In this document: one piece after another, positions 2,495-61,371 of the stretch
Layout of the letters: each line of letters begins with the position of its first letter
How positions within the stretch are numbered: the stretch's first letter is position 1
Assembly: GCA_020055645.1 (NCBI GenBank)
Contig: CM034548.1
Span: forward strand, 45,128,296 to 45,192,295
Source of the DNA: Tomocerus qinae
Lineage: Eukaryota; Arthropoda; Collembola; Entomobryomorpha; Tomoceridae
DNA: 64,000 nt
Direction of reading: 5' to 3'
Position numbers and translations under genes: made by a program
The notes under the pieces: generated by a model
The model's database searches: none
The model's input: the letters and a program-made list of their open reading frames with translations, nothing else
What the model was told of the DNA's origin: nothing

Positions 2495-16680
<14,186 letters not shown>

Positions 16681-33246: not shown

Positions 33247-36200
33247 TTATGGTAAGTTTGAAAAATATTTTATGGAAACTTTCATTTTAGTAAAAAGAAA
33301 AACATTACTTGATTCCTGTGACAAATCTTCAGCCACCTTCTGCTGATCCATTCCCGCTGGTCCAAAATATTGGCACTGTAAAATTCAGTTTAGTTAGAGA
33401 TATTAACTATTACAAAGCAACCAAATTAGATAAAAAGTAATTTAATTTGCCAACTAGAGTTCGCATATATGAATTATGACATATTTTAATTGAAAATAGC
33501 ATACTTGGATTTCTTCGCCATCTTCATCTCCCATTGCTATATCCGTTATCACTGGAGTTAAGTCACATTTAAACATTCCATTTTGAACATTGAAATCTTG
33601 TTTGTTAGAGTGATTTCTATTACGACTCGATTCATTGCGGTTGCTGGAAAGCTGAAGGTCCAGTGATCTTTTAATGGTTTTGATTTGTTCTCCTTCAAAA
33701 GGGACTAGATCTGAGTATTGATTTGTTTGATTGGTAGCTGCAAATGTTCTTAGTCGGCGAAATACATTGTTTAATCTGTTCGCCAGTCTATTGGACCATC
33801 CAAAGCATGCTATTTTTATCCCGTTACAATCTTTATTAACTTGATGAAGCTTTTGATAGGCACAATAGGATCCAATTCCAACGAGAACAACAACTCCACT
33901 TGCAACAACTAAAATATATTATTTTTCAAGTTACATCCATTTTTTAAAATGAAAATGCATCTGCTTTACATTTAAGTGAGATTACCCCAAAGGTTTACCA
34001 ATAATATAACATAACAGTCCAAAGTCCTTAAATAAGCTGAATTGTGAAGAGAATTATTTCAATGTATAATAGTATAGCCATCAATAAAAATGTTTAATAT
34101 CTATATAATAATAGCTGCACAAATGTCCTTTAACATCAACTTACGACTTTCAAATTTTTACTGGGCGGGGACATCATAGTCAGAACCCCAAACTTCGAGT
34201 TTCAAAACGATATCTTTCATAGAAATCGTTTTATGATTTTTTGAATTTCCAATTTTAACATTGAAGGAGTGGGAGAAAACGCTCCGATCTGTCACGCTTT
34301 GTCCAGATACTCCTCCTACAGTTTTCACCCGATCTTTACCAAACTTCTTCCTGACCTACTCGACTTAATAAAGAAGACGGTAGCCACTCCAGTTTTTTAT
34401 TTTTTAGTAGAAAATATTTTGCCAGTGAATTTCAAAAAGTACGGTATCGGGGAAGGGCATTTGCTTCGGCTAATTTTTTGAGACAGAGTGCATAACATTA
34501 GACACTTGTAATTTTTACCACTCATAAAAGAATGTCATAGGAAAATTTGAAGATCATTACTGAATGTGGCTTATTTTTAGTTTCGGGACTACAGCTGTGT
34601 CAATCGGACGCATTTTCCCATTAAATTACATTGTAAATAAATCCCAAGTGGAAAAAAACAACGAGTGCATTAGCCCAAAGCATTGAGATTTTCACCTTAA
34701 ACAGTACAAATATCAAATATTGTGTACTGTGATTTTCAACTGTGGCTTTTTCTTATTTGTGAAACTAAAGCAAAAATCATGAAAAAAATTCCAAAATATG
34801 CTGTATAAACTTTAGAATTTACTATACCTATTCATTCATATTCATATTCGTATTTATTTGAGTGCCAGAAAGTTCAAATCTTACAAGAAGAAATGTTTTA
34901 ACAACAGTCAGCACTGAAGGCAAGCCAGTATCGTCACCTTACTCCCACAATCAAAGCCGATTCGTACCCAGATAAAGTTCGATAGTCAATTTATACAGAC
35001 AAACATAAGTTTAATGTGTTGGAACACATAAATATTCTAAAAATTAAAGTTAATAACAACTAGTAGATAGAAACGTACTTAAAATTATATTAGTGCTAGT
35101 ATACATAGTCATCCTTACGTAATAGAAGTAGATATTGGTTTAGCAGAATTCCAAATTTACAGACAGACAAATTTTTAGCTTTTAGCACATGACTAAGGGA
35201 GTTCCAAGAATTACTGGCATAAAATACAGGACTTTTTGCAAAAGTAGCTGTATGATGATAAATAACTGGTAGATCATTGGATTGCCTTGTGCGTCTTGTT
35301 GATACAAAATCTTTATCGTTACAGTAATAGTTTTTAATTGAAATAATTTTGGTACCAAATATTAATATCTTATACAAACTTATCATTGTAACATATAGTA
35401 GTCTTTCTTGTACAGTTAAAAGATTACCTTTTTCAAGTAACATATAGTAATTAACTTTTTGATGATCTAATTTACATTGCTTAACTTTAAGATTATTTTC
35501 AATAGTAGCATTAGACCAAAAGTATTTATTATAATATTTTCCTAATTTAGGATACTGATAGATACATAGAGCCCTGTTAATTTTATTTTGAAGAGTACCC
35601 AGTTGATTTAATTTAGTAGGGCCCCAAATAGATATGGCGTAGTCAGAAAAGGGAAGCACGTAGGTACTAAGAAGCATTGCATATATCTTAAAAGGTACTT
35701 GTCTTCTAACTCTATTTAGTGCACCTAGCGCTGAGGAGTATCTCTTTTCAACAAAGTTGAAATGGTCATTGTAGTTTAATTTAGAATCTAGATATATCCC
35801 TAAATATTTGAATACAAAGACACGTTCTATATCATGTCCATTACATTTTACAGAAAGATTGTCATCTACACATGTGTTAATTTTGGTAAAGACCATAAAT
35901 TTAGTTTTATTGTAATTTATTTGCAAACCAACTGATTTACACCATTCATCTAAATCTTTTAAGTAAGATTCCAGTGTTTTGGAAATTTCAGTGGCGCTCT
36001 CATTAGCATAAATTATTACCAAATCGTCTGCAAATAGGACATGAAATATACCTTTACTTTTTAATTTAACCGAAATAACATTGAAATATAGATTAAACAA
36101 TAGAGGCCCAAGTACTGACCCCTGAATGACCCCACGTCCGTATTCAAACTGCTGGGAAATGTACTTTCCATTTACTACTACAAATTTACGGTTTAAAAAA

Positions 36201-39200
36201 TAATTATTGAACAAATCACTATAGACTGTAGGAAATTTATAGTAATTTGTCAACATTTCAGTTAAATTGTTTTGAATCACGTGGTCAAAGGCCTGTTTTA
36301 GGTCAATATACAAGGCCCCCACTTTCATTTTTGGTTTGTCCAGTTCAGAGTATAATTTTTGAGTAAAAGTAGTAAGCGCAGTTACACAAGATCTTCCTGG
36401 TCTAAAACCATGTTGTTCGTCAGTCAGTAATTCATTGTCTTCTACATATGTGGATATATTTGTTTTAATTATCACCTCAAACCATTTACTTAGCAGTGGC
36501 AAGTTGCTAATAGGACGATAGGACGAGGGATCTGATTTGCTACCTTTATTTTTGTATAATGGTAAAATTTTGCTTTGTTTCCATAAATTAGGCAAAGTTC
36601 CAGAATATAGAACATTATTGAAAATGATAGTTAAAATGTCAATGATAGATGTCATACAACCCTTGATAACCTGAGCAGGTATCTCTACATTCTTATCAGC
36701 TACTTTAAACTTAACTTTATTTGCAGCTCGGTCTAAATCCTCCTTTGTAATTGTTAAAGGTAACTTAGTGGACAGATTGTCCGTATCAATTAAAGTATAT
36801 TTAGAAATATCGCCTAGTATTTTATAAAATTCATCTACCTGAGAATCACTTTTACTGTTTACCATAAAAGTATCAGCTAGAGTTTCACATATAGAAGCAT
36901 TGCTCTCAATTATACAATCATTAATTTTGAGAGATTCAATGCTATTTGATTGTTTACGATTATTACAAAAAAGTATATTCAATTTATGCCATATACTACA
37001 TGAATCTTTGTTATCAGTCAACTCTTTGATAAAATAATCTTTCTTTGCCTGTGCCAATTCTTTAGAAACTCGATATTTCAATCTTTTGAACTTAATTTGT
37101 AATTCTGAACTAAAGTGTTTATCAAGTTTGTTTTTTACCTTTTGTTTCTCATAAATCATGGCTCTTAAACCTGGAGCATGCGTTTCATTGACTAAGCAAG
37201 TCACTTGATGTGCAGTTGCTTAGTTGACCTTTAGGCATGAGAGTGATATTATGTACAGCATGACAATTGCTCTAATAAAAGCCAAACTAATTGCCATGGT
37301 TTATGAAAACAAGTTTGTTTATAATAATATCAACCATTGATCCATGGAAGTGGGACTATTTTTAATGTTAACACTCATGTGTAACCAAGGAGTATTAACT
37401 GGTCTGGTGTCCATGGTTTCTCTTCTACTTTATCAGGAGAGTTCAGCTAGGCATTTTGCGCGAATATCTATAGGAGATGTTTTCGTTTCTTATACGATTG
37501 TTGCCAAAGAAAACTGGCAATATTGTCCCTTTAGTGCCTAGATGGACCCTCCTGATAAAGCCGTTGACATTCCTTGGGTGCACTATGTTCCTAGTTCCCA
37601 AGTTATCAATTGTTTTTGCAAGTGACCCAATCTAAATAATTTAGTCATCCTCCCTAATTAGCAATATCAGAGGAGCTTTAACTAGTATGGTATCTCTTTG
37701 GTTTTATCAGGAGGGTTCAGCTAGGCACTTAGCGTGAATATCTATTACGGATATTTTTCCTCCCTTATTCGATTGTTGCCAATGACAACTGGTAGGATTT
37801 GTCCCTTACAGATATTCACGTAAAGTGCCTATCTGTACCCTCCTGAGAAAACCGAAGACATACCAAGGGATACCACACCACCAGTTAAAGCACCTTGGCA
37901 ATACCCATTTCATTTTTTTATCGCTGCAGTTTATTAGTAACTAGGGTACCCTTGCCCTGCACTCGACATGTAGTTTTAGGGACATAAGAGGGCCTTGGGT
38001 TTTTGATCAGTTTTCCATTGTCTGTGGCCGGGTCTAGATTTCTTATCCGATACCGTTCTTTCACAAAGTCCTACTCTTTAAGCAGGCAGGCCTCCGCCAT
38101 GTATAGTGATTAGTGTCCCTTTCACTTCGAACGGGACGACCGCAGCGGAGTCAAACTATTAATAGCAAGTAGAGAGTTGCACGGGCTGACTTTTCACGGC
38201 CCGTGTCCGCCCGTGCCTGTAGTATCTGAGCCCGTGACCGCCCGTCCCAGTAAAAAATTCAAAGATCCAACCCGTGCCCGCCCGTATCAGTAATGAGTTT
38301 GACAAATCCGCCCGTGGGGGCCCGCGGGTGCCCGCGGGCCCACACGGGCGCAACATTTTTAAAAAATACATGTAACGCAATGTAGATAGATAGTACAATA
38401 ACAAAATGTGACGTTAAATGCTAAGTATTGCTTAGATAAATAAAGGAAAAGGACATAATAATAATAGAATACATACAGAACAGAGAGCATAGATTGTATC
38501 CTGTACTCTGTACAGCAGAGCAGAGTGTATTGAGTATCACTTATTATAATCATAATATACTACGGGCTTTCACGGGCCCCCGCGGGCTTCTAAATAAAAA
38601 TTGGCCCGCCCGTGCCAGCCCGTAAAAATAATTTATCAGCCCGTACCCGCCCGTGGCAGTGAAAAATTTTAAAATCTCCCCCGACCCCGCCCAAACCCGT
38701 ACGGGCCGGGCCGCAGCCGGTGCGGGCTGAGCGAGCCCGTGCAACTCTCTAATAGCAAGGCAACGTTTAATTAGTCATTTGGTTGTGGATTGAATAGGTT
38801 GACTTGACTTGACATAGGATTGGTTAACTAATGTAACGGGGTAGGTAGAAAATAGATAGAAATAACGAGGGCAAATAAAATAGTAGCTAATTAAAATAAG
38901 AGAGCCACTTAAAATGAAGAGGTGAAAATGACGTAAATATTTAAGATGAAGGGAATATTTAAAATAAAGAGATTATTTAAAATGACAGGAACGTTTAAAA
39001 TAACGAGGTTATTTAAAATGACAAGATTTTTTAAAATGACGTTATAGATTTAAAACAACGGTGTTATTCAAAATGAAGGGTGATTCTAAACGACAAAATA
39101 ATTTAAAACGACGGGGTTATTTAAAATGACTTCTATTTAAAATGTGGAGTCACTTACAATGACGTCTATTTAAAATCACGGGGTCATTTACAATGACGTC

Positions 39201-41949: not shown

Positions 41950-42913
<964 letters not shown>

Positions 42914-46655: not shown

Positions 46656-49600
46656 ATGACAATTCAAACGCTTCACGACGTAATTTTTGTCATCGAAGGA
46701 ACAGCTCTGTGTGGAGCTTATTTAAATGAACTGAAACAAAATTACATATTTCCAACTTTAGAGTAAGTATTTAACAAAACTAGCATTCGAATTCAATACT
46801 ATTTGCAATTTTCAAACAACAAATATGTTTTATGTATTTAACATTTTGTTTGATTTAGATTTTTTAATGGAGGTCATATTGAAGACAAAGACTGTGGCTC
46901 TGATGTAAGAAACATTTATAATATCATTTAATTCATGCCTATTTAAATAACATTACGCACCGTGGAAGTTTGCCGTCAAGATTCAAATTTTGATGTTTCC
47001 CCGAATTTTCTTTAATGTCTGTTTTCGTCATTTTCCTAATCCAAATACATTTTCCTAATGCAAAATATCCTTATTTACCAAGTTAAAGTTTTTATACTCT
47101 TCCCAACTTTTCGCTTCACGTTGTGAGCTGTTGGTAAGAGTTAAAGGACTATGGCCCAAAATTTTGGCTCCGGGAGACAAAATCTACCTCCAACTTGTTC
47201 TCGACTTCCCGTTATAGTGGCGTTGCGACGAAAATAGTAAAGAAATCCCCTTATCGCTAACCAGATCTAGCGTTTATTTTCGAAAACAAAGTCACCTTGT
47301 TTAGCGGGATTTTAAATACCGCTAGGTCAGTCTCCTAACTATTATTTACCGAATTTAATGAAATACTGACTATAGATATAAATATATAAGTCTGGTAAAA
47401 TTTCCTATGAACATCATTAATCACATTAGGGAGGAATGGAATATTTTTAATCTAAATAAATTAAATCGGGAACTGGACAAAATTTGATTTAATGGATATT
47501 ATAATTAGCATAAATTGGTGTAGGATCAAAAGTATTGACATAAAATTTGTTTTGATTCTTTTTAGTGTAATTTTACACTGTTTGGACTAGTGCTGTTTCA
47601 TTCCGCTGACATTTTACCCGGATATTTAAGCGAAGCTCATGGTCCAATCACAACACCCAGCAAACTTATAAATATGATAGATAAATTACAGTAAGCATTA
47701 TTAACATTCCAACTCTAATTATATTTACTTTTAATATTGAAGCATTAGTTAAAGTTCTAATTGTCAATTTACTGAACAATTAAAATATTGAAATTGTTTG
47801 TATTCATTAATGTTCGACACGAAAGAATTTATTTAAAATTGAGAAAATATGTACATAGATTTTCTGGCGGTCATGGTGAGGCTGCTTCACATGTGGGAGA
47901 AGGACTTGCTACAGCCCTGCAATGTCTCCAAGATTTGATCAAGTACAGAAATACATCCGGAGATGCACCGACAGTCGGTGAGTTTTGAACTATTTCCACT
48001 TACAAAAAATCTTATAACTGCTCCAACTTTGTAATATTACGTTGTTTGTAGCCACGAAGAAACATATAATTCTGGTTTGCAATAGTAAGCCTTATGGCTT
48101 ACCAGTAACGGAGTCTGTGGGTGCGGATGGTTCTTATAGAGGATTAGTAGCTGAACAATTAGCTGCTCACATGAATGATATCAACGTACATTTGTCAATT
48201 CTGTCACCTAGAAAAATTCCTGGTAACTATTGTCAATTGCTTTATCTATTTTCATTCACACTTCAAACTGTGATTGATACTCATTTTGTACTTTTTCTCT
48301 TAGCTTTAATCACGTTGTTTGATCGGGCTGGCGGTGAGTCATCAAGTCAGAAAACTTATGCAAAGGATGTCAGGCATTTGGTTCTACTCAGTGGCTACCA
48401 CTTACAAGTAAGTTTACTTAGTTTTGTTAAGTATTCTATCACGTACAGCTAAAACTGCATAGTAACAGCACATCCTATGAGAGTAGAAAGGTTTGTCTTT
48501 GGCGGAGGCAGAAACAATGTCCCCTAAAACAGGATGATATTTTTGTTGCATTGTAACATAATTAATAAATGATAAGAGTTTCAGGCAGTTTTGAACTCTG
48601 AATATTATTCCGCTTGTTGCTAACTGACGAACTTGTTCTATTCATATGCATGTAATTTGCTTTAAAAACAAGTGTAATATTTTTATACTGCATCCTAAGA
48701 AGTTTAACCTGAACGTCACTTGTATCATAATTTTAATTGAATGTGGAGAAAGTACAGAGGGTCGTTCTACTTCCTTTTTCGTCCACTGGTTCACATATTT
48801 CCAGAACTGCTGGATAAATGCTAAAAGTACATATTTGTAGGGAATGCTAATAAAAATTGGTGTACCAATTTTAAGAGGTCTGAAAATTTAAAGAAGTTTC
48901 AAATTAATATGTCAAAAGCATTTTGAAATTTTACAAAAATATAAAGTAAAGCACCTACAAATTCGTTAATAATTGGAGAAGAAATGATTAATGCGATTCT
49001 GAGAAAGTCATTTTGAACTTATGGCGAAAGTTACAAATGGGATTTCTTCACCTTTTATTCCCAATTGTTTTCGACTCAATTTAACAAGTGTCTTCTTTAT
49101 CAGCTAATTTTCATTTTTTAATTGGATTTTCACAAGTAAGGAATTTTAAGATTTCTACAACATCCAGAAAGTATAGGAACCAAAGGACGAAAAAAATAAC
49201 TTAGTACATTACTCGGTGTAGGTATTACTAATTGCTGTGCTATTCATGATTGAGCATCAAAAATGGCAATTTATTTGGTATTATGCCAAAGTCAACGTAA
49301 GCATTCTAAGCACCCCTTACAGCCTTTGAAATGAATGGGCAATTTTCTGCAACTTATACGATTTGAGAGTTAGCTTTGATGTAAGCTTAAGCTTTTAATT
49401 TGTAAACCTTTATTGTATAAAAATATTATATAAAATGTGTTTGAAGGCCAAATAGCATTTATTCATATATAATACAAAATATTAGATGGGAAATATAAAC
49501 TATCAATAGGGTTACCCATTTCAGTTTTTGCTATTACTACTTACGACCCGTAAGTATTTGCGTAGTGTTAGCGGGGCAGAAATACTGTGTCAATATTTTT

Positions 49601-52600
49601 GGGATCATTTTGCAAATAAATTTCAGGTGAATATTAATGGGCTGAAATAATGGTGATAATAGTAATATTATTCACAATGTATGTATCTAATTACGCCAAT
49701 GTTTAGCTTTGCGTTTATATATTTAATGGCAACATATATTAATTTTCAGCATGGTGTTTATTTAAGAAATATTATTACATTTGCTGGATAAATTTTTTGA
49801 GAATTTAATGCATTCAAAAGTTGGAATCCTCTGTGATGTATTGTATCTGGAGACATATCAAATTATCACACATTGACTACTTCCGCTTGAATAGCGAGAC
49901 GAAGTTAGCAATTGAAAGACAAATATGATCAGTCAATTTGTGTTATTGTAAATTCAATAAGTTGATAACTGCATGGAGAGGAGCTGTTATAATTTTTGTT
50001 TCTGCTAATAATAACGTTGACTCAGGTATGTGCTTCATATCAGCATGGAATTTTTAATGTTATTTTCGCAAGTATTATTTTATGTTGTATCTAATTATCG
50101 CCTTTTTGTTTCGATAGGAAAGAGCTTTGACACCAACGAAAATTGGTGACACGGGAGGAAATGTTTTACAACCTACTCAAGTTGTGCCTCAATTGCCGAG
50201 TAATCCTGTTCCACCATCACAAGTCTCTCAATCTTCACAGCAGCCTTCGCAAACGACTCCTATTCAAGTACAAGTACAGGTTTCCCTTCCCCAGCCGTTG
50301 CCTGTACAAAATCCGAGTCAGACGTCAACTGCCTCTTCACAGCCGTCGCCTCTACAGCAGTCCTTACAAAATGTAAACATGGGGTCGGCAAACCAAAATC
50401 AAATGAACCAGCCAATGACTATGAACAATGCAGGCAACATGTCTATGAGTCAGCAACAACAGCAACAACAGCATCTGATGATGATTCAACAAAGACTTCG
50501 TCCTCCATTGATGCGACCGCTTAACCCTCAGATGATGAATCAGCAACAGCAAGTTTCTCCAATGACGCCTCCCCAACAATTATTGTCACAACAGCCAATG
50601 ATGACTCCTCAGCAACTAAATCCGCAACAGCAAATGAATTCGCAACAGCAACAAATGATGACCCCTCCACAGCAGCAGATGACTCCTCAACAGCAAATGA
50701 ACCCACAGCAGATGAACCCTCAGCAGCAAATCAATTCTCAACAACAAATGAACTCTCAACAGCAGCAAATGATGACACCACAAATGAACTCCCAACAACA
50801 GCAAATGATGACGCCCCCTCAACAGCAGATGACACCTCAGCAACAAATGATGTCTTCGAACCAACAGCAAATAAATGCACAACAGCAGATGAATGCTCAG
50901 CAACAGCAGCAGCCAATAATGAATCCCACGCAACAACAGCAGATAGCGTCTCAGCAACAACAACAGCAACAACAACAGCAACAACAACAACACGGCATGG
51001 CTACGTCACAGCAACAACAATCGGTATCCTCTCAGCAACAACAACAGCAGCAACAAAATCAACAGCCACCCCAAAGTATACCTTCTCAGGCTCAATCCCA
51101 GCATATTATTCCTCAGCAACAAATGAACCAACAGCAACCCCAACAAATGATGCCTCAGCAACAACCAATGAATCCTCAGCAGCAAATGAACCAACAACAA
51201 TTGCCAGGTCCACATGGAATGAACCCACAGATGATAAATGCTTCACAAAATGTACAGCAGCAGTTACTTCAGCAACAACAACAACAGCAAATGATGAATG
51301 CGCAACAAATGAACACACAACAGATAAATACGCAGTTAAGTGTCCAGCAGCAGATGACCCTTCAACAGCAACAACAACAACAGCATGTTTTGCAACAACA
51401 ACAGCAGCCCAGATGGCCTAATCCTACTTTACAAAAACAAATTCAAATGCAGCAGGCGCAGCAACAGCAACAACAGCAGCAGATAAACATTGTAATAATA
51501 GCACATATGATAGCACAGATGTTTTTGAAAAACCAACCTTTGTATTTATCAATTGCGATTTCTTATTTTTACCGAATCAGCAGAACCAAGCCCAACCGCA
51601 ACAAAATGCTCCTTCGCAAATGCAGCAGACTCCATTGCAACAGCAACTGGGACAACAACCCCAGATAATCAATTCACACTCACCATTGATAGAGCAATTA
51701 AAAATTCCTCCTATGGGACAAGGTCAACCTCCTCATGGACGACAGCCGCCACCAGGAGGACCTCCAGGGCCAATTCAGGCCCAACCGCCTTTGGGGGCTT
51801 TGCCACCTGTAAACAACCAAAGAGAACGTCATATTATTTGGAGCGGTCTATTAGAATGGCACGAGAAGCAAAAGGGTAAATAATAATGGAATCAATAATT
51901 TTGGGCATAGACTATCAAATATTAAACTTTTGGAAATTTTGATAAAGGACCGCCTGAAGGTCAAAAGATACCACGGCAAGTCCCCTGTCAAGTTTCTGCA
52001 AACGTTGTTAGCGCAGAACCAGAAGTTAAAGGGGATGGCTGGCCTCCAAAACTTATCATGCAGTTGATTCCTAAGGCAATCGTGGGAAGTTTAGGTGGAG
52101 GATATTTTAGAGATGTAAAGACTGTTCTGTTTATGTTACAAAACTGCGATGCCCTGTCGTCTCTGACTCGCGTCATGGATTCTGGATTTGTATGTTTCTT
52201 TGTCTCTTTTTATTGGAAGTTGTAATGCTTGAGATATTGTTCTATTTATATAGCATTGTTATTAATGGTTACAGGCTGGCTGTGTTCATTTCACGGGAAC
52301 TGGGATGCAACAATCTTCTTGTAGTATTAAAGTTCTCATACTACTTTATAGTAAAGAACGTCACGCCTACCTAGGATTTATTCCAAATGACCAAGCAGGA
52401 TTTGTTGATCGGATACGAAAAGTTATTCAACAGCAAAAGACACAACAAGCGGTAATGCGTCAAGGACAAGGATTTCCACCGGGCCAAGGGATGCCCCAAC
52501 AAGGCATGGGTCAACAACCTCAGATGACTCAAATGACGCAGGGCATTGCACAGCCAGGAATGCCTCAACAGGGAATGCCACAACCCATGCAGTCAATTGC

Positions 52601-53261
52601 CCAACAACTTGGACAAAATCAGCCGTTAGTTCCCTCTACTGCGGTCTTGGCACAGCAGCTGGGTCAGGCGCAACAACAACAACAACAATTGAATCAACAA
52701 CAACAACAAGCTCCGAATTTGCAAGGTGGATCTGGTCAGCAAGGAGCGAATTCAGGACAGTCGCAGGCTGAACTGATTCAATTAGAACTAGAGCGGCAGC
52801 AAAATCTTTTGAAGATTCAGCAATTACAACAAACACTAGAAGCGGCTCAACAGAAAGAATTGCAATTTCAACAACTGCATAATCATCCTCCTGGAGGTCC
52901 TGGTCATCAGAGTCCGGGACCCGGCCAATTGCAGCAGCAACAAGCTCAGCAACAGCTACAGCAACAACAACTTCAACAACTCCAACAACAACAGCAACAA
53001 CAACAGGTTCGGGGTCAAATGATGAATCAACAAAATATAAACCAAATGAGAATGCTGCGCCCTTCTTCAGTTGCACAGGCTAATCCTGGCTTAAAGCACT
53101 TACTCCAACAACAACAAGCGCCTGCGCAGTACCGCATGCAAATGGCTAATTTGCAACAACAAAGAATGCCTCAGGGGCCTGGACCTAACGGACCTATGAA
53201 TCAGCAACAACAATTGCCCCAATATGTTGAGGATGTTGCTATTCTCGACCTTCTAAAGTGA
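46656..53261 (+). CDS. MED25: Mediator of RNA polymerase II transcription subunit 25
   Basis: Mediator tail subunit that receives signals from transcription activators. Ten exons: 46656-46762, 46859-46904, 47566-47690, 47859-47977, 48052-48222, 48304-48407, 50118-51491, 51581-51875, 51948-52189, 52275-53261 (TGA). All are GT/AG with matching phases, giving 1189 aa. The VWA domain (residues 1-224) opens [16 protein letters not shown]; as in other MED25 it lacks a metal-binding DxSxS. It continues [35 protein letters not shown] and [18 protein letters not shown]. Residues 225-760 are Gln/Met/Pro-rich, mostly one 458-codon exon. The ACID (PTOV) domain is about 765-915: [64 protein letters not shown] Gln-rich tail ends [10 protein letters not shown], like the acidic C-terminus of human MED25. 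It is much longer than human MED25 (747 aa) because of the Gln tracts. Confidence 0.95.
46905..47565 (+). other. MED25 intron 2; no other feature seen
   Basis: A 661-nt AT-rich intron with donor GTAAGAAAC and acceptor TTCTTTTTAG. No repeat was recognised. Confidence 0.8.
48408..50117 (+). other. MED25 intron 6; no other feature seen
   Basis: A 1.7-kb intron between the VWA part and the Gln-rich exon, with donor GTAAGTTTAC and acceptor TTTCGATAG. No extra exon was recognised, but a small alternative exon cannot be excluded. Confidence 0.7.
50440..51485 (+). repeat. CAA/CAG-rich tract encoding poly-Gln and [13 protein letters not shown] repeats
   Basis: Lies inside MED25 exon 7. Runs of up to about 13 Gln codons alternate with Met-Asn/Thr-Pro spacers. 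CAA and CAG are mixed, which limits slippage. The complementary strand gives long Leu-rich and Val/Ala/Ser-rich chance frames that are not genes. Confidence 0.92.
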
Positions 53262-54829: not shown

Positions 54830-55234
54830 GCGCGGTTAGTTAAAATGACGAGGTTATTTAAATTAGCGAGATTATTTAAAGTGATCGGGTTAATTTTAAC
54901 TAACGACGAGGTTACTAATGATTATTACTAACGATTGCTGATGGGTTGGATTGGACTAAACTGATGAGGTGATATAAAATGACGGGGTTATTAAAATGAC
55001 AAAGTTATTAAAATGACGGGGTAATTTATAATGACGAAATTATTTAAAATAACAGGGTCATTTAACCTTACGGGGTTGTTATGTACATGAAATCAATGAT
55101 ATTATGACAATCTGGCGCTGATGAAACGACTTCAAACATTTACTGTAGAAAAATCTTTATTTTTTGTTAAATGTTGTTGATTAAGTTGATTTGATAACTC
55201 TTATTCCCCGTCCGTAGGACGGGCTTATTTCTAG
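54830..55234. mobile_element. Helentron/DINE-like non-autonomous element, copy 2
   Basis: TTAAAATGACGAGGTTATTT-type units are followed by GGCGCTGATGAAACGACTTC at 55113, then a perfect 3' hairpin CCCGTCC-GTA-GGACGGG (55207-55223), CTTATTT and CTAG (55231-55234). Hairpin-to-CTAG spacing (7 nt) is the same as in the copy ending at 40106. The 11-G run at 54774-54784 lies just upstream. Confidence 0.6.
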
Positions 55235-55502: not shown

Positions 55503-56128
55503 GCTATTTATCAATGTTATAAAAAAAATATTCTCCACTTTTGCTCTATTTCCCTTGTATTATTAGAAGCTCTTTGACTAAGACATCATTACTTCAAGTA
55601 CAGGTAAACAGTATGGGGTTTCAAAGCACCAAAAATAAGTAACTTATTCCACTCAAACTACTCTTTTGCTAATTTCACTGATAGAAATATTTCTCTGCGC
55701 AGGCGCCGATACTCAAGTTCGAGTACTTATCTCTCTCACAAAAAAGGAACAAAAAACATCCTTATTTCACTCACTATTTGTACTCATTCTCATTCCGCCC
55801 CATTTCCCCATGTAATTTCCATTATTTGAAAATTTGCGCGCAACTGATTATCTCGATTTAGTGAGACTTTTGACAAAAAATTAAAAAATAAGTGGTACAT
55901 TCAACCAACGAGCAATAAAATTGACTTTTTACTTAATTGGTTTGAGTAGAAGAAGTACTTATTTTCCGTGCTTTGAAACCCACTAGTGTTCAGTTTTCCA
56001 TTTCATTATTGGAATCTCATAGTCTCATCATTCCCATGTCCGATCCACCTCCACCTCTCAAATTACTAAGTTTTATAGTTTCGATTTTCGTTCTGCCGTT
56101 TCTCCTATTTCCCATACCGGGAGCTGGT

Positions 56129-56320
56129 CTAACGGGGAGATTTTCTAATAGGAGGATTGCCTAACGGAGAGATTTTCTAATAAGGAGTTTGTGTAACGGG
56201 AAGATTTTCTAATAGAGAGATTGTCTAACGGGCAGATTTTCCAATAGGGAGATTGCCAAACGGGGAGATTTTCTAATAAGGAGTTTGTGTAACGGGAAGA
56301 TTTTCCAATAGGGAGATTAT
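56129..56320. repeat. 32-bp minisatellite, six units with an A-B-A order
   Basis: Unit form TAACGGGGAGATTTTCTAAT followed by a variable end. Type A ends AGGGAGATTG(T/C)C, type B ends AAGGAGTTTGTG. The order is A B A A B A, so a 96-bp trimer seems to have duplicated once. Confidence 0.85.
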
Positions 56321-59300: not shown

Positions 59301-59391
59301 TGATACTTTGTAAATGCTAAAAGATTTTAAAACATCGACTGATTACTTAATAGATTAGAACCCTCAGGATTACTTCCAAACAAATTTCAGC

Positions 59392-61371
59392 ATGATGAGT
59401 CTTGCGGTAGCAAACCATGAACGCCGTATCCTCTGGAGTGGGCTTTTAGAATGGCACGACAGGAAAAAAGGTTAAAGCTTTGATTAATAATGTAAAAAGT
59501 ATTTAAAGTGTGGAAATTCTATTTTCGATATTTGATGAAGGACCCCCTGATGGCCAAATAATACCCAGGCAAATGTCATGCCAAATTTCTGTCGACGTTG
59601 TCGACTCGGAACCGGAAGTTAAACAGATGGGCTGGCCGCCAGTGCTAATAATGCAACTGATCCCAAAGGCTATAGTGGCCAGTTTAGGTGGAGGGTATTT
59701 CATGACCGTCAAGACTGTCCTGTTCCTGTTACAGAAATGTGAAACTGTCGCTAACCTGACCGTTATGTTGGAATCTGGTTTTGTATGTCATTTCCTAATT
59801 TTATTCTTAACTATCTCATTTAACACATAATCACCATAATCATGGTTTAATGTTGTTTATCGCTGTTTCAGGCCGGATGTGTCCATTTCATTGGAATGCA
59901 AAATATCCCTTGCAATATAAAGGTTCTGATACTGCTTTACAGCAAAGAACATGGATATCTCGGTTTTATTCCAGGCGATCAACCTGGATTTGTGGATCGG
60001 ATAAGACAAGTTATCCAAGAGAGAAAGACTAATCAGTACCAAACAATCATGCAACGCGGACTAGGGTTCTCCGGTGCATCTGTTGTGACTCAGCAAACTA
60101 TCAGTGTCAGCCAACAACTTTTAGTGCCCGTTGATGCTATAGTAAACGCCAATGCAGAACGTCACATCATTTGGACTGGTCCGATGGAATGGTTTGAAAA
60201 GCGGAAAGGTAAATGCCGATTTTATTAAGTAACTTTAATTTTCAAGACACATTTGTCAATTTTGACAATTTTTACAAAGGAGAGCCCGAAAGTCAGACAA
60301 CGCCAAAGCGGATTCTAGCTCAGGTTTCGGCCAATGTGGTTAATGGTGACCTGGAAGTAAAAGGGAATGGTTGGCCTCAACAGCTCGTCATGCAGTTGAT
60401 ACCTAAATGCATCATTGCAAAGCTGGGCACGGAATTCTTTAGAAATGCAAGAACTGTTGTGTTTGTGTTTGAAAATTGCCCGGATCTTTCTTCTTTGACG
60501 CGGATCATGGAATCTGGTTATGTAAGTTACTTCAAAAATAATAACTTTGAAATAATTTTAAAATTGAATTACATGATCAGTGTCATTGACTTGGTTTAAG
60601 GCTGGATGCGTTCATTTTGTTGGACTGCAGCATGTAACTGCGGAAGTAAAAGTAGCAATGCTGCTATACAGCAAGGAGCGTCAAGCTTTTCTTGGATTTA
60701 TTGCCAACGACCAAGAAGGATTGGTTAATCGCATACGTGAAGTCGTCCAGCAGCAAAAGGCATTGTACCAACAAGCTGCAATGATGACTCAGGGACAAGC
60801 GATGGCCCTACAAGGCCCGATTCAACAGCCACATTCCTCCCAAATGGCACAAATTGCTTACCAGTCGGAAATGTATGCGCAGGTGGCGCCACAACCAATG
60901 ATGATGCAGTCATTATCCCAGCAGTTTGAACAAAGTATGTCTTTAACTCCGTCGGCTTCGGGTCTAGCACAACAGTTAGCGCAAGTTCAGATTCAACCAC
61001 AAGTTCAGATTCGGCCACAAGTTCATTTTCAACCACAAGTTCAATTTCAGCCACAAGTTCATTTTCAACCACCAGGTTATTTTGAGCCACAAATTCAGAT
61101 TCAGCCACAAATTCAGATTCAGCCACAAATTCAGATTCAGCCACAAATTCAGATTCAGCCACAAATTCAGATTCAGCCACAAATTCAGATTCAGCCACAA
61201 ATTCAGATTCAGCCACCAGGTCATTTTCAGCCACAAGTTCATTTTCAACCCCAAGTTCAAATTCAGCCGCAAGTTCCAAATGTCCAGGGAGGATTCCTTC
61301 TACAAGGAGCAACTTCAACGGTGTCTGAAATGGATCTTATTGAATTAGAGCTGTCTCTAATGGAACTATGA
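59392..61371 (+). CDS. MED25 paralogue with two tandem ACID domains (PTOV1-like)
   Basis: Five exons: 59392-59470, 59541-59782, 59872-60208, 60280-60521, 60601-61371 (TGA), all GT/AG with matching phases; 556 aa. ACID-1 (about 12-159): [63 protein letters not shown]. Linker of about 43 residues. ACID-2 (about 203-352): RHIIWTGPMEWFEKRKG, WPQQLVMQLIPKCIIAKLG, AGCVHFVG, LLYSKERQAFLGFI. The Gln-rich tail has a QPQIQI repeat and ends DLIELELSLMEL. There is no VWA domain. Both domains use a 242-nt exon of the same phase as MED25 exon 9. The tail block PNVQGGFLLQGA...LIELEL matches MED25 [12 protein letters not shown]...LIQLEL, so it derives from MED25. The start ATG-ATG lies one base after an AG acceptor (CAAATTTCAG|C), implying a non-coding first exon upstream. 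By analogy with PTOV1 it could compete with MED25 for activators (inference). Confidence 0.9.
61087..61212 (+). repeat. 18-bp coding minisatellite, seven identical units
   Basis: CCACAAATTCAGATTCAG repeated seven times without change, encoding QPQIQI hexapeptides in the tail of the MED25 paralogue. It is flanked by diverged relatives (CAACCACAAGTTCA-type). It is open on both strands and so produces long chance frames on the minus strand. Confidence 0.95.

What the first reader, a model, noticed from the sequence alone, without database searches (positions are those of the whole stretch)
59392..61371. A double-ACID, PTOV1-like gene next to MED25 in an arthropod-like genome
The gene has two tandem ACID/PTOV domains and no VWA domain, which is the layout of vertebrate PTOV1, and it lies directly downstream of MED25, as PTOV1 neighbours MED25 in human. 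Domain 1 here is much closer to this MED25 than one would expect of an ancient orthologue (shared [18 protein letters not shown] and [10 protein letters not shown]), and the tail copies a MED25 tail block. This points to an independent local duplication that reinvented the PTOV1 architecture, or to a conserved pair kept similar by gene conversion. A VWA-less ACID protein cannot dock into Mediator through the VWA domain and could act as a natural decoy for activators.
Basis: partly seen in the sequence, partly recalled or inferred. Interest (0 to 1): 0.88.

Follow-up and report, generated by a model that had tools for sequence, protein, structure and literature searches.

The report
MED25-derived double-ACID gene beside MED25
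Beside its MED25 gene this animal carries an intact shorter relative with two copies of MED25's activator-binding domain and no detectable Mediator anchor, laid out like human PTOV1 but apparently copied separately within its own lineage.

Summary
Window 59392-61371 (+) is an intact five-exon gene model (556 aa) with two ACID/PTOV domains (PF11232, 2.3e-90, two stretches), 6.1 kb downstream, on the same strand, of a MED25 gene with VWA and ACID parts. Each ACID copy is cut by two introns at the same positions and phases as MED25's ACID. D1 is 72% and D2 61% identical to the local MED25 ACID, but 41-44% to human MED25. Silent sites are near saturation, introns have diverged, and dN/dS is about 0.1: an old duplicate under purifying selection, without recent gene conversion. 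A Drosophila double-PTOV gene is already in print, called the PTOV1 orthologue. So the kind is known; what may be new is evidence that the gene here and vertebrate PTOV1 arose separately. The likely function, inferred, is competition with MED25 for activation domains; D1 has lost the Arg466 equivalent.

The parts
59392..59470 (+). PTOV1-like gene exon 1: start codon and first part of ACID domain 1; ends phase 1
59541..59782 (+). exon 2: middle of ACID domain 1; ends phase 0 at SGF|AGC
59872..60208 (+). exon 3: end of ACID domain 1, linker of about 43 aa, first part of ACID domain 2; ends phase 1
60280..60521 (+). exon 4: middle of ACID domain 2; ends phase 0
60601..61371 (+). exon 5: end of ACID domain 2, glutamine-rich tail of about 200 aa, stop
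60880..60990 (+). 37-residue tail block matching the MED25 tail
   Evidence: score 83; 0 of 2,000 shuffles reach it (maximum 69); block chosen after viewing; coordinates counted by hand
60982..61276 (+). 18-base tandem array (16.4 copies) coding Q-[VI]-[QH]-[IF]-Q-P hexapeptides
46677..46763 (+). MED25 probable VWA piece 1 (not submitted to Pfam; named from recalled resemblance to human MED25)
   Evidence: position only
47860..47979 (+). MED25 VWA piece (PF11265, 1.7e-07)
48063..48224 (+). MED25 VWA piece (PF11265, 1.2e-15)
51824..51875 (+). MED25 ACID, first part; exon ends phase 1
51948..52189 (+). MED25 ACID, middle exon; ends phase 0
52275..53261 (+). MED25 last exon: end of ACID, Q-rich tail with an LxxLL motif (LKHLL), stop
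52569..52673 (+). MED25 tail block matched by the PTOV1-like tail
   Evidence: coordinates counted by hand

Best explanation
The gene is an old local paralogue of MED25's C-terminal half, made inside this animal's own lineage rather than inherited from the gene that became vertebrate PTOV1. MED25's ACID segment, with its two introns and part of the tail behind it, was copied downstream and is now present twice in one protein without a detectable VWA domain. Shown: domains, gene model, intron positions, selection, grouping with the local MED25. Inferred: the protein binds acidic activation domains with both ACID domains but, lacking the VWA, does not anchor in Mediator, and so competes with MED25 for activators or coactivators, as human PTOV1 does for CBP. 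Also inferred: the domains have diverged in preference. D2 keeps the Arg466 equivalent used by p53TAD2/VP16-H2-type helices, whereas D1 has Met there and keeps the opposite, Gln451 face unchanged.
For: Two PF11232 domains. The same two intron positions and phases in all three ACID copies. Identity: MED25w-D1 72.0%, MED25w-D2 60.9%, D1-D2 48.7%; 36-44% to the three human rows. Tree: local triple against human triple 100/100; the clade A+B+D1+D2 is rejected (p 5.6e-15), as are A+D1 (1.2e-161) and B+D2 (5.7e-07). Of 157 columns, 16 separate the two lineages and 0 separate PTOV1-type from MED25. dN/dS 0.10 and 0.12 by NG86 for D1 and D2 against MED25; Biopython ML gives dN 0.178 / dS 1.57 and 0.260 / 1.75. 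Neutral drift of one ACID leaves 2 of 2,000 copies stop-free at d = 0.8 and 0 of 2,000 at 1.6. TAD-contact residues equal to local MED25: H1 face 7 of 7 (D1) and 6 of 7 (D2); H2 face 8 of 10 each; Q451 is kept in all six rows (sites from passages of PMC7564715, and PMC6222444). Human PTOV1 does not join Mediator and draws CBP from MED25 (review PMC5355357, passages).
Against: Old gene conversion in both lineages could mimic this tree. The published view calls the Drosophila gene the PTOV1 orthologue. The order of copying is unresolved: MED25w+D1 has support of only 78/66, and D1+D2 (p 0.193) and MED25w+D2 (p 0.196) are not rejected; the human side is unresolved too (48/39). Tajima tests do not show D1 or D2 faster than MED25 (4 vs 9; 12 vs 13), although the tree draws long branches for them. 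The linker behind D1 does not clearly match the MED25 tail (score 38; shuffle 95th percentile 36, maximum 46). Several H2-face sites already differ between local and human MED25 (8 of 10), so face assignments carried over from human are tentative. There are no transcripts. A splice-acceptor-like TTTCAG lies directly before the ATG, so an unseen 5' exon could add sequence. Binding and competition are untested.
Confidence: 0.62

Rival explanations
1. One ancient bilaterian PTOV1, true orthologue of human PTOV1, whose domains were overwritten by the neighbouring MED25 through gene conversion in each lineage.
For: Same layout and same order: human MED25 lies 14 kb upstream of PTOV1 (strand not stated there). 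The review treats the fly gene as an orthologue. In both lineages the first domain is closer to MED25 than the second is (recalled PTOV1 rows).
Against: No PTOV1-specific column of 157 survives. Silent sites are diverged in 14 of 14 segments and introns have diverged, so no conversion is recent. The window protein has a Q-rich tail of about 200 aa and almost no N-terminal extension, whereas human PTOV1 (416 aa, A 146, B 143, eAT-hook in the first 43 residues) has its extension at the N-terminus.
Confidence: 0.25
2. It is not a separate protein: exons from 59391 on are spliced to MED25 upstream exons, giving a MED25 isoform with an exchanged or added ACID pair, which would anchor in Mediator.
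For: TTTCAG acceptor-like sequence directly before the ATG, though only 57% pyrimidine over 21 bases; same strand, 6.1 kb away.
Against: An ATG opens the exon in frame; the gene has its own full tail and stop; MED25 ends with its own intact last exon.
Confidence: 0.08
3. A decaying duplicate without function.
For: No transcript evidence is at hand; the tail holds a simple hexapeptide array.
Against: 556 codons open, four intact introns, dN/dS about 0.1 at near-saturated dS; simulated drift of one ACID leaves 0 of 2,000 copies open at d = 1.6.
Confidence: 0.03

Closest known systems
Drosophila melanogaster double-PTOV gene ('orthologous PTOV1', acc. AC013074, as cited in review PMC5355357; gene-structure section read)
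   Same: Two tandem PTOV/ACID domains; an insect gene, on the same chromosome arm as MED25.
   Different: Fly A/B are 33% identical, D1/D2 here 48.7%; fly MED25 is 3 Mb away, here 6.1 kb.
Vertebrate PTOV1
   Same: Two ACID domains, no VWA; downstream of MED25 (14 kb in human).
   Different: Its domains are 81% and 73% identical to human MED25 (published); here 72% and 61% to the local MED25 and 36-42% to recalled PTOV1. eAT-hook N-terminus there; Q-rich tail here. 12 exons there, 5 in this model.
MED25 of the same window
   Same: ACID domain family, intron positions, tail block.
   Different: Has VWA and an LxxLL motif; the neighbour has neither in the gene model.

Membership tests
PTOV1-type proteins (layout) | Two tandem PF11232 ACID/PTOV domains in one protein | tested here: met
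PTOV1-type proteins (layout) | No VWA domain | tested here: met
   None in the gene model and no convincing second VWA copy in the window by tblastn with three pieces; an unseen 5' exon is not excluded
PTOV1 (orthologue of the vertebrate gene) | Domains group with vertebrate PTOV1 rather than with the local MED25 | tested here: not met
   AU p 5.6e-15, six rows, PTOV1 rows recalled; old gene conversion could mimic this
PTOV1 (orthologue of the vertebrate gene) | N-terminal extended AT-hook | tested here: inconclusive
   The model begins nine residues before domain 1, leaving no room for one, but a 5' exon is not excluded
PTOV1 (function) | Binds activators or CBP and does not join Mediator | not testable with these tools
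   Contact residues largely conserved; no binding data
MED25 (Mediator subunit) | VWA anchor plus ACID | tested here: not met
   the neighbour at 46677-53261 meets it

The most novel reading that the evidence does not exclude
Arthropods and vertebrates each built, separately, a VWA-less double-ACID protein from MED25 and kept it downstream of MED25, so that 'PTOV1' is a convergent competitor of Mediator and not one conserved gene. In the version seen here the two domains have begun to split MED25's two activator-binding faces between them: D1 lost Arg466, D2 kept it.
Probability: 0.45. Interest if true: 0.62.

Novelty: new member of a known kind. Interest (0 to 1): 0.42.

Why it matters
Human PTOV1 is studied as an oncogenic protein that counters MED25, and the review read here treats insects as carrying the orthologous gene. 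If the gene arose separately in the two lineages, results would not transfer between them by orthology. The repeated origin would itself argue that a Mediator-free ACID protein is a selected way to limit MED25-dependent activation.

Tried and rejected
Recent gene conversion was rejected: 14 of 14 sliding 20-column segments show silent divergence between MED25 and D1. Intron similarity z-scores of 2.35-4.89 fell to -0.13 to 1.95 for the six homologous pairs once 8 bases were trimmed from each end, so I take them as mostly splice signals; the highest, MED25 intron 1 against D2 intron 1, stays at 1.95. Faster evolution of D1 or D2 was suggested by branch lengths, but the Tajima test does not support it. 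'D2 is older than D1' is not resolved. A copied extreme C-terminus (acidic-hydrophobic end in both genes) was seen by eye only and is not claimed.

Relatives: two IMG/VR scans, one GTDB scan and phage records gave no relative. A control with the window's conserved G-alpha exon also gave none in IMG/VR, so a miss there says little; no such control was run in the GTDB or phage collections. No genome is held for the window. Rfam and ARAGORN gave 0 matches, so nothing there places the species. Structure prediction was not used: its stated rule asks for proteins read letter for letter from the DNA, and this one is spliced.

Papers: nine searches (one search listed 10 of 8,669 and 10 of 19). By titles, abstract beginnings and, for seven papers, passages, I saw none that treats insect and vertebrate PTOV1 as independent. 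Two papers looked up were not held. Benedit 2001, the first report, was not looked up.

Full report
What is there. The window is 33.9% G+C and its genes have introns. On the + strand, MED25 runs from about 46677 (probable VWA piece at 46677-46763, VWA pieces at 47860-47979 and 48063-48224; the last two match Med25_VWA) to a stop at 53261, with its ACID spread over three exons (51824-51875, 51948-52189, 52275 onwards). From 59392 to 61371 a second gene has five exons and four GT..AG introns and codes 556 residues without a break. Pfam finds two Med25/PTOV ACID domains in it. A search of solved structures with its first 362 residues at E up to 1 gave 7 sequences, all 7 named MED25.

How the copies relate. 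Each of the three ACID copies is interrupted twice, after the first lysine/glycine block (phase 1) and at SGF|AGC or SGY|AGC (phase 0). MED25-D1 identity is 72.0%, MED25-D2 60.9%, D1-D2 48.7%; human MED25 ACID is 44.1, 41.3 and 43.8% identical to MED25, D1 and D2. Behind D2 a 37-residue block matches the MED25 tail (score 83; 0 of 2,000 shuffles reach it, maximum 69); I picked the block after seeing it, but the whole tail also exceeds its shuffles (172; maximum 161 of 500). The linker behind D1 does so only marginally (38; 95th percentile 36, maximum 46). The block runs into a 16-copy array of Q-P hexapeptides. No convincing second VWA was found with three pieces, the best off-target hit being E 0.15.

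Age and selection. Silent sites between the copies are near saturation (NG86 dS 1.85 and 2.07 against MED25; not computable for D1-D2). dN is 0.178 and 0.250, giving dN/dS 0.10 and 0.12; Biopython's YN00 failed for all three pairs, and its ML gave similar values. None of 14 sliding segments shows silent identity between MED25 and D1. Trimmed introns give z from -0.13 to 1.95 for six homologous pairs. In 2,000 neutral simulations of one ACID, 0.001 of the copies stayed free of stops at d = 0.8 and none at d = 1.6. The gene is old, intact and constrained. This speaks against 'kept similar by recent conversion' and against a decaying copy.

Independent of vertebrate PTOV1? In a six-row tree, MED25, D1 and D2 of the window form one side and human MED25 with PTOV1 A and B the other, with support 100/100. 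Of six groupings examined, four-domain orthology, A+D1 and B+D2 are rejected; D1+D2 (p 0.193) and MED25w+D2 (p 0.196) are not; MED25w+D1 is in the best tree at 78/66. Of 157 columns, 16 mark the two lineages and none marks PTOV1 against MED25; one column each is shared by D1 and A and by D2 and B. The protein ends differ too: human PTOV1 has an AT-hook N-terminus, this gene a Q-rich C-terminus.

What is already known. The Oncotarget 2016 review (PMC5355357; passages, the gene-structure section) states that PTOV1 is conserved in vertebrates and insects, that Drosophila has a PTOV1 gene with two domains 33% identical to each other, and that fly MED25 lies on 3R, 3 Mb from PTOV1. It also says that human MED25 is 14 kb upstream of PTOV1. 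So a double-ACID gene in an arthropod is expected, and linkage to MED25 is shared loosely with flies. The review's word 'orthologous' is what the present data question, on the assumption, untested here, that the fly gene and this one are the same gene.

How it probably works (inference). ACID binds acidic activation domains on two opposite faces (passages). On the H1 face (K413, P414, I449, Q451, V534, I537, R538 of human MED25) D1 equals local MED25 at 7 of 7 sites and D2 at 6 of 7. On the H2 face (ten sites) each equals it at 8 of 10 (background 108 and 91 of 150), but local MED25 itself equals human MED25 at only 3 of these ten (F465, R466, L514; seven differ), so the face is a tentative carry-over. 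The striking change is Arg466 to Met in D1; PMC6222444 gives, in a docking model, a salt bridge of Arg466 to p53TAD2 and describes this arginine as highly conserved among MED25 homologues. Without a VWA the protein should not dock in Mediator. Human PTOV1, which does not join Mediator, withdraws CBP from MED25. I therefore favour a competitor of MED25 with two unlike binding domains. None of this binding has been tested for this protein. (Where the Against line counts H2-face sites differing from human, the count is 7 of 10.)

Verdict. Observation confirmed; interpretation partly supported; a new member of a known kind with a testable claim of convergent origin.

Noticed in passing
window 35096-37219 (-): A 707-residue open frame with a reverse transcriptase domain (RVT_1, 3.1e-35): a LINE-like element.
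   Followed up: partly
window 2910-3197 and 41950-42853 (+): Exons of a G-alpha protein (PF00503, 7.1e-21) and of an adenylate-kinase-family protein (PF00406, 2.9e-15 at 42482-42853; 0.00025, below the cut-off, at 41950-42207) upstream of MED25.
   Followed up: partly
window 59371-59391: A TTTCAG acceptor-like sequence directly before the ATG of the double-ACID gene, hinting at an unseen 5' exon.
   Followed up: partly
window 56120-56318: A tandem array of a 32-base unit (6.2 copies) between the two genes; short arrays also at 54834-54914 and 54957-55077.
   Followed up: no
window 53220-53261 and 61320-61371: Both genes end in a short acidic-hydrophobic stretch (MED25 ...[12 protein letters not shown]; neighbour ...SEMDLIELELSLMEL), of the general kind that ACID domains bind; seen by eye, not tested.
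   Followed up: no
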